Of a stretch of 64,000 nucleotides of DNA, positions 18,954-24,680 are shown in pieces. The notes under the pieces were generated by a model, which worked only from the letters and a program-made list of their open reading frames with translations, was not told the origin of the DNA and made no database searches. The stretch is from the NCBI GenBank assembly GCA_001803045.1, contig MHAR01000021.1, positions 62,001 through 126,000 of the forward strand, read 5' to 3'. Within the stretch, counting starts at the first letter, position 1, and each line of letters starts with the position of its first letter. Source of the stretch: Ignavibacteria bacterium RIFOXYB12_FULL_35_14. GTDB lineage: Bacteria; Bacteroidota; Ignavibacteria; Ignavibacteriales; Ignavibacteriaceae. A program made the translations under genes and the position numbers.

Positions 18954-19688
18954 ATGTTAATGCCAATTGGTGACGATAACAGCGATCGCAGATTAAAACC
19001 ATTGATCAATTATCTGCTGATTGCTGCAAATATTTTTGTTTTTATTTTTTTCCAAGGACTCGGTACAAATGAGAAGTTCACCTATGCTTTTTCGACTGTA
19101 CCTGAAGAAATTGTTTCCGGGAAAGATGTTGTAACTGAAGATCAAATGTACGAGGACCCTGTAACTGGTGAAAGATTTAGAGTATCAGGATTGCAGCCCA
19201 CTCCAATATCAGTTTACATTACACTCATCACCTCAATGTTTATGCATGGAGGATTTACTCATATCTTCGGTAATATGCTTTTCTTGATGATATTTGGCGA
19301 TAATATTGAAAACCGGCTCGGGCACTTACGATATTTAATTTTTTATTTATTAGTTGGAATAATCGCTTCATTAGCTCATGTATTCGTTAGCGTATCGCTT
19401 GGAAGCAGCACACTAATTCCTTCATTAGGAGCTTCTGGTGCCATCTCAGGAGTATTAGGCGGCTATCTACTGCTATTCCCTAAAAGAAGAGTCCGTGTTG
19501 TAATGTTTTATCAAATCATGGTTGTTCCCGCAATCGTTGCAATTGGAATTTGGTTCGCCTTCCAATTGATAAATGGAATTGGAATTTTAGGCAGTTCGCA
19601 AGGCGGCGGTGTTGCTTATGGTGCTCACATTGGTGGTTTTATTGCCGGCTTATTCTTAATTAAATTTTTTGCGATTGGAAGAAGGTGA
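18954..19688 (+). CDS. Rhomboid-family intramembrane serine protease
   Basis: Rhomboids cut transmembrane segments of other proteins inside the membrane. The 244-residue protein has the helix 2 motif MFMHGGFTHIFGNML (96-110), the catalytic serine in GASGA (Ser161) and the catalytic histidine in AYGAHIGGF (His225), with six hydrophobic helices. A hydrophilic insert (about 45-80) separates helix 1 from helix 2, which is common in bacterial homologues. It stands alone on the plus strand at the edge of the accessory region. Confidence 0.95.
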   Translation: MLMPIGDDNSDRRLKPLINYLLIAANIFVFIFFQGLGTNEKFTYAFSTVPEEIVSGKDVVTEDQMYEDPVTGERFRVSGLQPTPISVYITLITSMFMHGGFTHIFGNMLFLMIFGDNIENRLGHLRYLIFYLLVGIIASLAHVFVSVSLGSSTLIPSLGASGAISGVLGGYLLLFPKRRVRVVMFYQIMVVPAIVAIGIWFAFQLINGIGILGSSQGGGVAYGAHIGGFIAGLFLIKFFAIGRR

Positions 19689-19737
19689 ATGAAAGGAACT
19701 AAAGTTATATTTAAAGAGGAACACCGATAAATTATCG

Positions 19738-19784
19738 TATCTCTTTGGGGAGTTTCTTAGAAAATATTTGCTCGATGTGAAGAC
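19738..19784. repeat. Left copy of direct repeat flanking the cassette array
   Basis: Bases from 19738 share GGGGAGTTTCTTAGAA and further matched positions (TTGCT, GATG, GAA, AC) with 23671-23715, in the same orientation. The two copies bracket the cassette-like block. The repeat runs directly into the half attC site at 19774-19811. Confidence 0.7.
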
Positions 19785-19811
19785 ACTTTCAGTTTGAGGT
19801 ACGGGTTATAC
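19774..19811 (-). repeat. Half attC-like site after the SieB-like gene
   Basis: On the minus strand, GTATAAC lies 7 to 13 bases after the stop of the SieB-like gene and is followed by CCGTACCTCAAACTG. This closely resembles the left half (R'' and L'') of the full site at 21378-21564 (ATAACCCGAGCCTCAAGATG), including the extra C that gives the extrahelical base. The matching right half is not found, so the site seems cut off where the flanking repeat begins. Confidence 0.5.
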
Positions 19812-19818
19812 CAGATTT

Positions 19819-20361
19819 TTATTTTAAATATTTTGGATTCTTTATAAGCATTTCCCAAGCCCAAGGTTGAATATTAAATGGAAACTTTAATTTAGGTCCC
19901 CGACTTATATTTGAAGATATATACAGAACATTATTAGATTTAAGACCCATTGCAATACCATTTCGATAACTAAAATTTCTTGTCTTTGTATCGTTGAAAA
20001 TATATTCTCGCAATAATTCCTTTTCGTCTTTTGAAAGATTCTCAAGTATATACTTGTAAGTTTCCTCATTTTTTAGGGGGTCAAGTTCTTCATCTTCATT
20101 CGGCATAGTCGGCTCAGTAAATCCTTTTTGATTATTTAATATCTCCTCCATCTGTCTCTTTGAAGAATTCCGAAAATGATAAATGATCAATATTAAGCTA
20201 AGGAGAAGAACAAGTATTAAGTTGATTAACCATTTAAATGTGATAAACTTCCCAACTGATGAATACATATCATTTGTGATATCAGCAAGTAAACTAGAGA
20301 TAATCAAAAAGATTAGTCCAAGGATAATACTGATGACGATAGTTCTCTTTTCATTTTTCAT
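19819..20361 (-). CDS. SieB-like superinfection-exclusion family membrane protein
   Basis: The 180-residue protein has two N-terminal membrane helices (about 6-28 and 42-62), a charged linker, and a C-terminal domain with the pattern LSKDEKELLREYI...FPFNIQPWAWEMLIKNPKYL. That combination matches my memory of the SieB (superinfection exclusion B) family, in which phage-encoded members block infection by related phages. It is an AT-rich stand-alone gene on the minus strand, preceded by a degenerate attC and followed by a half attC, so it looks like an integron cassette. An anti-phage role is inferred from family and context. If the family call is wrong it is simply a small membrane protein. Confidence 0.65.
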   Translation of the reverse strand: MKNEKRTIVISIILGLIFLIISSLLADITNDMYSSVGKFITFKWLINLILVLLLSLILIIYHFRNSSKRQMEEILNNQKGFTEPTMPNEDEELDPLKNEETYKYILENLSKDEKELLREYIFNDTKTRNFSYRNGIAMGLKSNNVLYISSNISRGPKLKFPFNIQPWAWEMLIKNPKYLK

Positions 20362-20371
20362 ATGACCAAAG

Positions 20372-20461
20372 GTATAATGGCGTGTTATGTTAAAATAAAA
20401 CAGCCATAATTAAGATACTATTTTATCTGGTTGACTTTTTACTTATTAAAGAGGTTATATT
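20372..20461 (-). repeat. Degenerate attC-like site between cassette genes
   Basis: Read on the minus strand, ATATAAC (20455-20461) begins 9 bases after the stop at 20471, and ATTATAC (20372-20378) ends just before the SieB-like gene. The right end has the AACACGCC-ATTATAC layout of the intact sites (AACGCC-GTTATGT), but the inner arms pair poorly and the cleavage G is changed to A. It is called mainly by position and end sequences. Confidence 0.4.
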
Positions 20462-20470
20462 GCGCAATCT

Positions 20471-21351
20471 TTAACTAGATAAAACCTTAATTTCTTCTGT
20501 ATGAAATTCTTCTAATGGCTCTATATCTAAATTCAAATAATTCAAACTATTAGAAAATACTTCTTCCTTTTCATTAATCTGTTCCCCATTTTCAATTTTA
20601 TCAATAATGTATTTATTTGCTATTGTAAAAAAAGCTGGATCAAGTTCATAGTTACTATATGTTCCACGTAAACTAGCATCTTCTCTACCAGTTATTCTAA
20701 TCGAAATAGTTTTTACAGTCAAATTCAATATTTTGTTAGATTCTTCAAGAGAATCTTTTAACACATAAGTAAAATTCATTTGGAAGTAATCTCCAAAAGG
20801 ATTTGTTCTTTTTTTAGTTAAGAATTGCAAATACATCACAGTAACCTCATCTTTATAAATTAGATTTAAACGTGAATAAACTTTTTCCCAATATTTTGAA
20901 TCATTATGAACAAATTCAATACAAAAGTCCAAGAAAGAATCAACAGTTTCCGTTTTCTTAGAAAAAAAAATTCTCATTTCCTTTGGCATTTCATTATCAT
21001 AAAGTAATTCAAATTCCTTATCCCGATACTCAGAACTTCCATAAGGAAATTTTATAAGTTCACGAAATGCGTTATTTGGAATAAATGACCTAAAAAAAAT
21101 AAAGATTGCTCCACCATCTTCAGAAGCATACTTTTAAATTCTGCTAGTTTATTTTCGGTGAGATTTTCGGTTTTATAAACTCTGTGCGCGGTTAATAGTT
21201 TTAATGAATTTTCAATATCAAAAATATCATAACCTTTTAATGCTGAATATGGATAATAATGTATGTTTACTTTCTCTCGTTTTATTAAGAGGTCTGAATA
21301 AATTTTAATTATTTCGTCAGCTAATTCAATTGATATACTTTTCAGACTCAT
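20471..21351 (-). pseudogene. Cassette gene broken by a one-base frameshift (about 293 residues if restored)
   Basis: Two frames join into one protein if a single A is added to the AAAA run whose complement is 21132-21135. The first frame (from the ATG at 21351, with an AGAGGTG ribosome-binding site) reads to ...ENKLAEFK. The second continues KYASEDGGAIFIFFRSFIP and RELIKFPYGSSEY, and runs to 20471. The joined protein has no signal peptide or membrane helix, and I recognise no family. The frameshift could be real decay, a sequencing error in a homopolymer, or programmed slippage. Its stop is followed after 9 bases by an attC-like end, and an intact attC lies upstream. Confidence 0.75.
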
Positions 21352-21377
21352 CTAAAGTTCACCTCTAAATACAAGCA

Positions 21378-21564
21378 ATATAACGACTTTGTGCCTAAGC
21401 TGCTGCCAAGCACAACAATGATTTATAAAAGTAATTAAATAAAAATTTTAAGAACATTTAATTAAGAGGACACAGTGAACAAAAAACAAAACATGGAACG
21501 ACCAAACCAAAAAACCAAAAATGCCGAATGCGAAAAGGCAGTCATCTTGAGGCTCGGGTTATGT
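21378..21564 (-). repeat. Integron attC recombination site
   Basis: Read on the minus strand: R'' ACATAAC (21558-21564), 5 bases after the stop of the upstream gene; spacer; L'' GCCTCAAGATGACTGCC; a long middle; L' GGCAGCAGCTTAGGC; spacer; R' GTTATAT (21378-21384). L'' and L' pair imperfectly with one extra C in L'', the extrahelical base typical of attC. The middle shares AAATGCCGAATGCGAAAA (plus strand) with the site at 22167-22355. The site is long (187 bases) but within the range known for chromosomal integrons. Confidence 0.75.
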
Positions 21565-21570
21565 AGCTTT

Positions 21571-22131
21571 TTATTTAAAGCCTCTACCGTATCCATAATG
21601 TTTTGCTTCTGCTTTTCTTACGATTATCTCATAAGAATCTTCGAAAAATTTTTTATTTACCTTTTGTGTGTATTTATTCCCACAAACCGGGCAAAGATAT
21701 ATTATCATCGTCTCTTTAAACAAATCATTATAAATTTCTTTCATTTCTATTTCAACACGATGCTCTTTACAAAATGGGAAATTTTTAACTTCCCCAGTAT
21801 TTTTATCAACACGCCAAGCAAATCCATATTGTTCTATAAAAGTAAAAGGATTACGCCTAATCCTTCTTTCATAAGCTTTATATCCAAGAGAGAAACATAA
21901 TGGAATTAATAAGAACCCTAACAAAAGATGCCATAGGAGCAGGTTTGACGGTGGTTCTCCTATGGTTGTTCGTAATAAATTTGTGGCTGAGTTCCAAATA
22001 TTATCCTTCAGAGATAAGAATAACAATAAAAGACTTGCGGTTGAGAACATAGCTTGATATATATTTTGCAAAAGACATGCTAAAAAAGATTTGGCGACAA
22101 ACTTTAGCGATTCTATTATTTTCTTTTTCAC
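21571..22131 (-). CDS. Membrane protein with C-terminal zinc-ribbon-like motif (cassette gene)
   Basis: The 186-residue product starts at a GTG. It has two hydrophobic segments (about 20-45 and 62-85), a basic KAYERRIRRNP stretch, a part with an FCKEH motif, and CPVCGNKY near residue 150. The two cysteine groups could bind zinc. No known family is recognised. The gene is bounded on both sides by full attC sites in the same orientation, so it is the clearest single-gene cassette in the window. No ribosome-binding site is obvious. Confidence 0.75.
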   Translation of the reverse strand: MKKKIIESLKFVAKSFLACLLQNIYQAMFSTASLLLLFLSLKDNIWNSATNLLRTTIGEPPSNLLLWHLLLGFLLIPLCFSLGYKAYERRIRRNPFTFIEQYGFAWRVDKNTGEVKNFPFCKEHRVEIEMKEIYNDLFKETMIIYLCPVCGNKYTQKVNKKFFEDSYEIIVRKAEAKHYGYGRGFK

Positions 22132-22166: not shown

Positions 22167-22355
22167 ACATAACGGCGTTGTGCTTAACCCGCAGCCCAGA
22201 ACAAGACTGCCGAATAGTAGCACAAACATTAATGTTTTAAATAATTTTGTTAAGTAAAACAAAGCCAAACAAGTTAGCCGAAACGGAACGACTAACATTA
22301 AAATTATAAAAATGCCGAATGCGAAAACGCTGTCGGGTTGAAGCACTTGTTATGT
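22167..22355 (-). repeat. Integron attC recombination site
   Basis: Minus-strand reading: R'' ACATAAC (22349-22355), starting 7 bases after the stop of the HEPN-like gene; L'' TGCTTCAACCCG; a long middle; L' CGGGTTAAGCAC; then AACGCC and R' GTTATGT (22167-22173). L'' and L' are complementary apart from one extra C in L'', exactly the asymmetry seen in well-known sites such as that of aadA cassettes. Pairing extends inward (AACCCG-CAGC with GCTGCGGGTT). This is the best attC in the window. Confidence 0.82.
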
Positions 22356-22362
22356 GGTTTTA

Positions 22363-22875
22363 TTAATTATTTATGTATTTAATTTGATTATCTATTTCTG
22401 TTCTAATTTTTGAAACCATTTTCTGTAGCATTAATAATTCATTTTTTTCTAGTAACTGGCGAACTGTTTTTCTACTGTGTGAAAAAAACTCTCTGTAATA
22501 AATTTGAATATCATTTGCTGAAGCATCTGAATGAGCAAATTCCTTATCTCTTTCGGTAATTATTCTTTTATGTAATTTATTTTCTTCATCGGTAAAATCT
22601 TTTCTCAATTGTGTGTTTATTTCTTCAATATTATTAAATCCATAACTTCGTTTAAAATTTCGTGCATAAGAAATTACAACTGCTATATTAAGAGCATTAT
22701 GAGTTGGAGTTGCTTCTCTAACATCAAGTTTAAATGGTTCATAGTTTTTTAATTCGTTTATGAGAACGTTTACTTCTTGAAATTCGCTTTTTAAAAGATA
22801 TAAGTATGATAGTAGGTTTTCTTTAAATTTTTTAAATAAATTATTTATACCTAGTTTATTTTCACTCAAATTCAT
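22363..22875 (-). CDS. HEPN-like protein (cassette gene, partner of membrane gene)
   Basis: The 170-residue, mostly helical protein contains R109-D-K-E-F-A-H115 (R-x5-H), which resembles the RxxxxH catalytic motif of HEPN RNases such as AbiU2-type and toxin proteins, in a setting (LHKRIITERDKEFAHSD) typical of that group. HEPN proteins often cut RNA in abortive infection or toxin-antitoxin systems. The start overlaps the stop of the upstream membrane-protein gene by 4 bases, so the two are translated together. An attC follows its stop. The HEPN call rests on one motif and the predicted helical fold. Confidence 0.6.
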   Translation of the reverse strand: MNLSENKLGINNLFKKFKENLLSYLYLLKSEFQEVNVLINELKNYEPFKLDVREATPTHNALNIAVVISYARNFKRSYGFNNIEEINTQLRKDFTDEENKLHKRIITERDKEFAHSDASANDIQIYYREFFSHSRKTVRQLLEKNELLMLQKMVSKIRTEIDNQIKYINN

Positions 22876-23300
22876 AATCCTAATTTTATTGATTGTGTTA
22901 CTCTATCTTGTAAAATATCATTTGATTTTTTTAATTCCATTAGGTATTCAGATTTTTGTTTTTCGTCTTCTTCGTGTTCAGCAAGATCCTTTAAAATTTC
23001 TCTATATTTATCAAATGCTTTGTTTCTTCCAATTTTCCCACTCAATACCCAAATAATTGCAATAATGAATAAACAGATAATCCAAGGAATGATAGTAGTA
23101 TAGAAGGTTAATATTAAACAAGTTATGAATAATGTTATTCTTATAACATCATATATTTTTTGATTCTTTAAAAACAATATAGGCGTTTCGGTTCTAAAGC
23201 CAAGATGATAAATTGTAATCCAATTATCAACTTTAATTGAAAACCAAAAGTAAATTAATACAAAAATTATAAAGAGTATATCAAACACAATTTTAACCAC
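22872..23300 (-). CDS. Small multi-pass membrane protein with C-terminal coiled-coil-like tail
   Basis: The 142-residue protein starts at a GTG and has hydrophobic segments at about 3-22, 52-70 and 72-88, then a charged helical tail (100-135; Glu, Lys, Asp). I do not recognise a family. The 4-base overlap with the HEPN-like gene suggests a two-part system: a membrane-bound sensor or anchor and an RNase-like effector (inference). The sequence ACATAAC, complement of an attC R' box, covers the start codon (23299-23305), as expected at the upstream border of a cassette. Confidence 0.65.
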   Translation of the reverse strand: MVKIVFDILFIIFVLIYFWFSIKVDNWITIYHLGFRTETPILFLKNQKIYDVIRITLFITCLILTFYTTIIPWIICLFIIAIIWVLSGKIGRNKAFDKYREILKDLAEHEEDEKQKSEYLMELKKSNDILQDRVTQSIKLGL

Positions 23301-23460: not shown

Positions 23461-23619
23461 TTTTCTTTAACAAAATTCATTCTAAGAAGTTTTCTAAACC
23501 AATTTGTTTATCCCACCACAGATCCTCGACCAGATGTTAAAAATTGGAGCGTTGCCTTAACACCACTTGAAACTTACATTTTGGGAAATCAAAAATCACA
23601 GGTGGGCTTACGGTTGTAA
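23461..23619 (+). pseudogene. C-terminal remnant of an outer-membrane-like protein (repeat copy 1)
   Basis: A 52-codon open stretch with no start (an in-frame TGA precedes it at 23458) reads like the end of a beta-barrel protein. It includes FVYPTTDPRPDVKNWSVALT and closes with LGNQKSQVGLRL before a TAA. Two more decayed copies of the same DNA lie at 24545-24680 and 25467-25512. The family is not recognised. Confidence 0.55.
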
Positions 23620-23670
23620 TTCTGCTAAGGGCTATTCTTCTTCGAAAAAGGAGCACCCCTTTAGTTTCGC

Positions 23671-23715
23671 ATCTCGCTGGGGAGTTTCTTAGAATCAATT
23701 GCTGGATGCGAAAAC
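23671..23715. repeat. Right copy of direct repeat flanking the cassette array
   Basis: Matches 19738-19784 in the same orientation (GGGGAGTTTCTTAGAA core, then ATTGCTGGATGCGAAAAC against ATTTGCTCGATGTGAAGAC). Together the copies bracket about 3.9 kb containing the attC-bearing genes. The stretch 23620-23767 otherwise holds no gene. Confidence 0.7.
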
Positions 23716-23767
23716 GGCTTCCCAGAACCTGATTCGGGGGCGTCCGTTTAATTGGCTATTAGGTAGC

Positions 23768-24088
23768 TTATTCTGCAAACATTTCCTTTAAAACATTTAG
23801 GACTTTAGTTTGTGTTATTTTATTTAGCGTATCTATTTTTTTCATCAGTCTTGATTTATCAACTGTTCTGATTTGATCTAATACAACTTGACCTTGCTTA
23901 CCATCTACTTTACAAGGAACACGTGTTGGATAATTTCGTAGCTTTGATGTGAGTGGAGCAATAATTACTGTAGCGATATTGTAATTCATTTCATTGGGAG
24001 AGATAATTATACATGGACGGGTCTTTTTAATTTCACCCCCTATTGTTGGATCTAAATTAACATAATAAACATCAAAACGAGAAAACAT
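23768..24088 (-). CDS. mazF: MazF/PemK-family mRNA interferase toxin
   Basis: MazF-type toxins cut mRNA at short sequences. The 106-residue protein shows the family start FDVYYVNLDPTIGGEIKKTR, the PCIIISP segment with the conserved arginine before it, VIIAPLTSK and the QVVLDQIRTVD block. The ATG follows directly on the stop codon of the antitoxin gene, the usual antitoxin-first order. It stands next to the cassette array; small toxin-antitoxin pairs are often found with integron arrays and may stabilise them. Confidence 0.93.
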   Translation of the reverse strand: MFSRFDVYYVNLDPTIGGEIKKTRPCIIISPNEMNYNIATVIIAPLTSKLRNYPTRVPCKVDGKQGQVVLDQIRTVDKSRLMKKIDTLNKITQTKVLNVLKEMFAE

Positions 24089-24346
24089 TTACCACTCCCA
24101 TTCTTCTTTGTCCCACTTTGACTGTTCAACTAATATTTCAGAATCTAATAAAATATCATCTTTATTTTTTGCCATCTTTCTAAATTCTGTTTCCCAGGAT
24201 TCCCGGTTTTTAGAAATTGGTTTTATTATTATTTGTCCATCATTAACTTCAATTTCGACTTCACTTTTAAGCCCGCTTTCGTCTATTAACGACTTAGGGA
24301 TTCTTATACCTCGTGAATTGCCGATTTTTATAACTTTAGTTTTCAT
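24089..24346 (-). CDS. mazE: MazE/AbrB-family antitoxin
   Basis: The 85-residue protein has an N-terminal AbrB/MazE swapped-hairpin DNA-binding fold (VIKIGNSRGIRIPKSLIDE, then VEIEVNDGQIIIKPI) and an acidic, Trp-rich tail (EQSKWDKEEWEW) that would fit into the MazF groove. It precedes mazF with no gap. Such antitoxins usually repress their own promoter, which should lie in the 24347-24420 region. Confidence 0.92.
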   Translation of the reverse strand: MKTKVIKIGNSRGIRIPKSLIDESGLKSEVEIEVNDGQIIIKPISKNRESWETEFRKMAKNKDDILLDSEILVEQSKWDKEEWEW

Positions 24347-24544
24347 GTTCTACCTTTTAATAATGTGTCTACAATGTAATTACATTTAGTGGAACAATCA
24401 AGCTTAATATTTAGAAGATTTTTTTTCAGGGATAGCCTACCCATGACTTACGCCACCTATGATTGTTGATTAAAGAACATAAATATACATATCGTCAGGC
24501 AAGTATGTAAGTAGTTGCACTCACAAGGGATGGACATGTAGATA

Positions 24545-24680
24545 ATTTCTAAATCAAATATATCCATGGATAACACATCCAAAGATCCCCGTCCAGATGT
24601 AAAAATAGAAGCGTAGCATTAACACCTTATGAAACTTACATTTTGGAGAATCAAAAATCAAAGCTGGGCTTAATGTTGTG
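24545..24680 (+). repeat. Decayed repeat copy 2 (outer-membrane protein remnant)
   Basis: This stretch matches 23486-23612 over more than 100 bases (shared GAAACTTACATTTTGG and AATCAAAAATCA blocks), but with internal frameshifts that destroy the reading frame. It sits between mazE and the lipoprotein gene. The rest of 24347-24885 holds no gene; a small AGGCGC-CGAA-GCGCCT hairpin is at 24739-24754. Confidence 0.65.

What the first reader, a model, noticed from the sequence alone, without database searches (positions are those of the whole stretch)
19819..20361. SieB-like protein carried as an integron cassette
A two-helix membrane protein with the C-terminal pattern INIQPWAWE-like ...NP-YL resembles superinfection exclusion B proteins, usually found in prophages. 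There is no prophage here; an attC-like half site follows the stop. A phage-exclusion function captured by an integron would fit recent views of cassettes as defence stores.
Basis: partly seen in the sequence, partly recalled or inferred. Interest (0 to 1): 0.65.

Follow-up and report, generated by a model that had tools for sequence, protein, structure and literature searches.

The report
Phage-exclusion gene in an integron array
A small membrane protein of the SieB family, known for stopping infection by competing phages, sits here as a gene cassette in a short integron-type array on a bacterial chromosome rather than in a prophage, fitting the recent picture of integrons as stores of anti-phage genes.

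Summary
The finding holds up. Lambda SieB, P22 SieB and SPbeta YopH hit the same model. The predicted architecture is two membrane helices plus a confident C-terminal winged-helix-like domain (95-180).

The gene is the last of four cassettes on the minus strand. Two complete attC sites (22355-22167, 21564-21378) separate earlier cassettes. Each cassette's start is complementary to its own attC R'' box (10, 10, 9 and 7 nt; the true pairing is the best of 24). After sieB only the 5' half of an attC remains; the site before it is degenerate. Integron integrase genes lie elsewhere in the genome, all fragmentary, so this is a cluster of attC sites without an adjacent integrase. No phage genes flank it.

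SieB is rare nearby: 3 of 97 genomes (own included). No attC was seen beside other copies examined, but one lies by a restriction system. Phage exclusion is inferred from the family, not shown. Verdict: a sound new member of a known kind.

The parts
19819..20361 (-). sieB-like CDS, 180 aa: two N-terminal membrane helices and a C-terminal winged-helix-like domain (residues 95-180)
   Evidence: ORF; Pfam PF14163 E 1.3e-10, 41.5 bits, residues 10-175; model
19805..20377 (-). SieB cassette, from TTATACC (20377-20371) to its own attC R'' box GGTATAAC (19812-19805)
   Evidence: 7-nt exact complement between cassette start and R''
19713..19812 (-). 5' half (R''-L'' and part of the loop) of the SieB cassette's attC; the L'-R' half is missing
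   Evidence: TAACCCGTACCTCAA half site; aligns with 5' halves of other attC sites of this genome; no GTTA partner before the rhomboid gene
20371..20462 (-). degenerate attC between cassette 3 and the SieB cassette; R' reads ATTATAC instead of GTTATAC
   Evidence: boundary complementarity on both sides; weak fold
20465..21384 (-). cassette 3; its gene looks frameshifted (ORFs 21052-21351 and 20471-20989 in two frames)
   Evidence: 9-nt start/R'' complement; frames
21378..21564 (-). complete attC of cassette 2
   Evidence: rank 4 of 540 candidates in the window; 80% identical to the attC of cassette 1 over 54 nt
21571..22131 (-). cassette 2 ORF, 186 aa, unknown, hydrophobic N-terminus
   Evidence: 10-nt start/R'' complement
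22167..22355 (-). complete attC of cassette 1, VCR-like, with an unpaired C in the L'' arm
   Evidence: best of 540 candidates in the blind scan, -25.1 against -18.0 best in the reversed window
22363..23300 (-). cassette 1, two overlapping ORFs (22872-23300 and 22363-22875)
   Evidence: 10-nt start/R'' complement
23768..24349 (-). mazEF toxin-antitoxin pair next to the array, followed by an attC-loop-like remnant (about 23645-23770)
   Evidence: Pfam PemK 2.3e-30 and MazE 1.5e-10; 78% over 50 nt to the SieB 3' flank

Best explanation
The gene encodes a SieB-family inner-membrane protein that was captured as an integron cassette and now lies at the end of a four-cassette array without an adjacent integrase. 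The array's last attC has lost its 3' half where it abuts the chromosomal rhomboid gene. Shown: SieB profile membership over the whole length, the predicted two-helix plus winged-helix-like architecture, the cassette boundaries, and the absence of phage genes around it. Inferred: the hairpin of two helices anchors the protein with both ends in the cytoplasm (charges at KNEKR and RNSSKRQ fit), the winged-helix domain senses a product or nucleic acid of an infecting phage, and the protein then stops macromolecular synthesis, ending the phage cycle together with the cell, as P22 SieB does.
For: PF14163 at 41.5 bits over residues 10-175; lambda SieB, P22 SieB, SPbeta YopH and Shewanella SieB hit the same model at 98-151 bits; tblastn to YopH 44% over 74 residues, E 3e-7, and to Shewanella plasmid SieB 41%, E 7e-8. 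Model: helices 2-26 and 30-79, then domain 95-180 with block pLDDT mostly near 92; the structural second look places residues about 90-180 on winged helices, mostly ArsR, MarR and CodY, at Z 6-7. Cassette: attC at 22355-22167 is the top candidate in a blind scan; start/R'' complement runs of 10, 10, 9 and 7, true pairing 36 against 30 for the next permutation; the attC 5' half after the sieB stop aligns with other attC sites of the genome. Integrase genes in the same genome and in 27 of 59 genomes searched, own included. The rhomboid neighbour in a congener (84% identical) is followed by other DNA. SieB copies elsewhere lie beside defence genes: a type III restriction enzyme and toxin-antitoxin genes in G081 (by eye), an Abi gene on the Shewanella plasmid. 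P22 SieB stops macromolecular synthesis midway in superinfection (PMC10883804). About a tenth of V. cholerae integron cassettes are anti-phage (review PMC12409362).
Against: The SieB score is modest, and direct BLASTP with P22 SieB finds nothing; membership rests on the profile. The attC before sieB is degenerate and the one after is half lost. The fold of attC sites 2 and 3 alone is not clearly better than shuffled DNA. No promoter, expression or phage test. No other attC-flanked SieB was found in nine loci. PADLOC has no convincing match.
Confidence: 0.6

Rival explanations
1. The sieB gene is an ordinary chromosomal or island gene that happens to border an attC array and is not itself a cassette.
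For: Flanking attC sites are degenerate (20462-20371) or half (19812-19713). SieB in G014 is a solo chromosomal gene without attC.
Against: 7-nt complement between its start and its own R'' box, the fourth in a row of four matching cassettes; attC 5' half directly after the stop in the right orientation; the congener has no such gene.
Confidence: 0.1
2. It is a remnant of a prophage, the usual home of sieB.
For: Best annotated relatives include phage SPbeta YopH and an Akkermansia phage.
Against: None of the other cassette ORFs has a PHROGs match; flanks are core genes; no IMG/VR contig encodes a close relative.
Confidence: 0.04
3. The protein belongs to the SieB family by sequence and fold but is not an exclusion protein; it is a membrane-anchored winged-helix regulator with a cellular role.
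For: The C-terminal domain resembles ArsR, MarR and CodY DNA-binding domains; the experimental evidence I know of concerns lambda and P22 members (P22: PMC10883804), and this one is distant from them.
Against: Family members outside prophages lie beside restriction, Abi and toxin-antitoxin genes; it is patchy in distribution, which fits defence better than a cellular regulator.
Confidence: 0.2
4. It is a decaying, silent cassette with no present function (compatible with an anti-phage past).
For: Neighbour cassette 3 looks frameshifted; all integrase copies are partial or interrupted; the cassette is last in the array and no integrase promoter is near.
Against: The sieB frame is intact over the full family length.
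Confidence: 0.25

Closest known systems
SieB of phages lambda and P22 (Pfam PF14163)
   Same: Full-length profile match, similar length (180 against 184 and 192 aa), two N-terminal helices, same C-terminal domain region
   Different: No significant pairwise identity with P22 SieB; carried in an attC array and not between ral and N; no esc start annotated
YopH of Bacillus phage SPbeta
   Same: 44% identity over 74 C-terminal residues, same NIQPWA end
   Different: Prophage gene; function of YopH itself untested to my knowledge
Anti-phage cassettes of Vibrio and mobile integrons (Darracq 2025, Kieffer 2025, as reviewed in PMC12409362)
   Same: Small single-gene cassette with a likely anti-phage role in an attC array
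   Different: Host outside Vibrio and outside the mobile resistance integrons; attC sites partly decayed; SieB is not named in the review; activity not tested
CALIN (cluster of attC sites lacking an integrase)
   Same: Four cassettes, no integrase over the cut-off on the same 157-kb contig
   Different: Terminal attC truncated, one internal attC degenerate

Membership tests
SieB (PF14163) | Profile score over the curated cut-off, spanning the domain | tested here: met
   41.5 bits against 26, profile 4-146 of 147
SieB (PF14163) | Experimentally known members hit the same model | tested here: met
   lambda 103.5, P22 101.4 bits
SieB (PF14163) | N-terminal membrane hairpin and soluble C-terminal domain | tested here: met
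   hydropathy and model, both predictions
SieB (PF14163) | Excludes superinfecting phages by stopping macromolecular synthesis | not testable with these tools
   needs phage assays
SieB (PF14163) | Companion Esc product from an internal start (P22) | not tested
   P22 esc starts at codon 25; an in-frame Met32 exists here but no start signal was examined
Integron cassette | attC with paired R''/R' and L''/L' arms after the gene | tested here: inconclusive
   only the R''-L'' half after sieB; complete sites after cassettes 1 and 2
Integron cassette | Cassette start complementary to its own attC R'' box | tested here: met
   7 nt for sieB; 10, 10, 9 nt for the others
Integron | Adjacent integron integrase gene | tested here: not met
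   integrase hits over the cut-off only on contigs C11 and C51; filed as a CALIN, not a complete integron

The most novel reading that the evidence does not exclude
SieB-type membrane proteins are a mobile class of membrane-anchored winged-helix phage sensors that travel in integron cassettes and defence islands well outside lambdoid phages, so lambda SieB would be one captured member of a bacterial defence family.
Probability: 0.25. Interest if true: 0.6.

Novelty: new member of a known kind. Interest (0 to 1): 0.42.

Why it matters
Anti-phage cassettes are documented in Vibrio and mobile integrons. This case extends the idea to an integron-rich lineage, tentatively near Ignavibacteria, and to a classical phage-borne exclusion family whose mechanism is still poorly understood. 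The predicted winged-helix-like domain gives a concrete handle for testing how SieB detects infection.

Tried and rejected
Close relatives of the SieB protein in genome contigs and viral contigs: none. The SieB alignment had no stretch conserved enough for pattern search. The repeat CTAAGAAACTCCCC was first suspected as a mobile element end; it occurs only twice in the genome, both times in attC-like flanks here. Fold z-scores of whole attC sites are uninformative (-1.41, 0.15, -1.28), perhaps because of their long loops. The reversed-window null reaches -18.0, so the cassette 2 attC at -17.8 is not significant by stem energy alone and rests on similarity and boundary complementarity. No sequence relative in the PDB: the hits to acetylcholine receptor helices cover only the membrane helices. 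Weak PADLOC CARF-TM hits centre on the helices and were rejected. Foldseek gave no match at E 0.001 or below in PDB or BFVD. Literature: no held paper combines integron, attC and superinfection exclusion in a relevant way; the search for SieB with integron was swamped by words beginning with 'sieb'; most subscription papers are not held.

Full report
Observation. The ORF at 19819-20361 lies on the minus strand and encodes 180 aa. Pfam gives SieB, PF14163, E 1.3e-10 and 41.5 bits against a cut-off of 26, aligned over residues 10-175 and profile positions 4-146 of 147. As a control, lambda SieB, P22 SieB, SPbeta YopH and Shewanella SieB all hit the model. Pairwise, the protein is 44% identical to YopH over 74 C-terminal residues, but BLASTP with P22 SieB finds nothing. 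Profile comparison of six relatives with P22 SieB gives 90% probability and with lambda SieB only 17%.

Structure. AlphaFold with a six-sequence alignment gives two long helices (2-26, 30-79) and a confident domain 95-180 in the order helix, helix, strand, helix, strand, strand, helix. In the structural second look, residues about 90-180 align with ArsR, MarR and CodY winged helices at Z 6-7, rmsd about 2.5-5 over 65-85 residues. Such Z values are middling and Foldseek found nothing at E 0.001, so 'winged-helix-like' is the claim, not DNA binding.

Cassette array. Scanning the window without prior positions for paired R''/R' boxes and paired inner arms ranks the site at 22355-22167 first of 540 (-25.1), and 21564-21378 fourth. 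The reversed window gives at best -18.0, so the first is clear by itself and the second is supported by similarity to the first and by its boundaries. Both have an unpaired C in the L'' arm, the extrahelical base expected of attC (my knowledge of attC; structures). In integrons the R'' box of a cassette is complementary to the first bases of the same cassette. That holds for all four: runs of 10, 10, 9 and 7 nt, sum 36; the best wrong assignment gives 30. The R'' boxes differ between cassettes, so this is not one repeated motif. A caveat: I placed the boundaries by eye before scoring.

The SieB cassette runs from 20377 to the R'' box at 19812-19805. After it comes TAACCCGTACCTCAA and about 90 further bases that align with the 5' half of attC sites from contigs C12, C42, C52 and C56 of the same genome. 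The 3' half is absent; the rhomboid gene ends at 19688. The site between cassette 3 and sieB has ATTATAC in place of GTTATAC and folds poorly. So sieB was most likely a cassette, and is probably no longer freely mobile.

Genome context. The window is part of a 157-kb contig of a 4.1-Mb genome. Integron integrase matches over the cut-off lie on contigs C11 and C51, with further partial copies on C52 and C68; all lie near contig ends and are partial or interrupted. 27 of 59 genomes searched, the window's own among them, have an integrase over the cut-off. The lineage is tentatively near Ignavibacteria: the rhomboid's named relatives at 65-68% include Ignavibacteria but also Acidobacteria bins. 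In the congener G001 the rhomboid gene (84% identical) is followed by unrelated DNA.

SieB elsewhere. Three of 97 genomes (own included) pass the cut-off, and 8 of 395 across the phylum. G081 has sieB near genes that read as a type III restriction enzyme and a toxin-antitoxin pair (named by eye). The Shewanella plasmid copy is beside an Abi gene. No attC of the kind found here was seen beside nine other copies, though that scan is strict and missed some attC sites of this genome.

Function. [quoted passage not shown] By family, the most likely role here is abortive exclusion of phages. That step is inferred. A review reports about 10% of V. cholerae integron cassettes as anti-phage (PMC12409362), so the setting is compatible and no longer very surprising.

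Verdict. Observation confirmed, interpretation supported for family and cassette origin, function open. New member of a known kind; interest 0.42.

Noticed in passing
window 20471-21351 (-): Cassette 3 carries two ORFs in different frames with coding character on both sides of the junction, which looks like one frameshifted gene or an assembly error.
   Followed up: partly
window 22363-23300 (-): Cassette 1 holds two overlapping ORFs: a hydrophobic 142-aa protein and a 170-aa protein with RDKEFAHSD, which resembles an R-x(4-6)-H HEPN motif by eye; no Pfam match over the cut-off. A possible two-gene defence cassette.
   Followed up: partly
window 23645-24349 (-): A mazEF pair sits beside the array and is followed by sequence 78% alike, over 50 nt, to the flank after sieB, suggesting another decayed cassette.
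   Followed up: partly
window 23538-23617 and 24600-24679: An 80-nt direct repeat, 84% identical, flanks mazEF; its nature is unknown.
   Followed up: no
G000 contigs C11, C51, C52, C68: Several partial integron integrase copies at contig ends, two with stops in their 5' part; the assembly seems broken at repeated integrase genes.
   Followed up: partly
G000 contigs C12, C42, C52, C56: Further attC-like sites scattered over the genome, some with perfect ACAACGYCGTTATG ends.
   Followed up: partly
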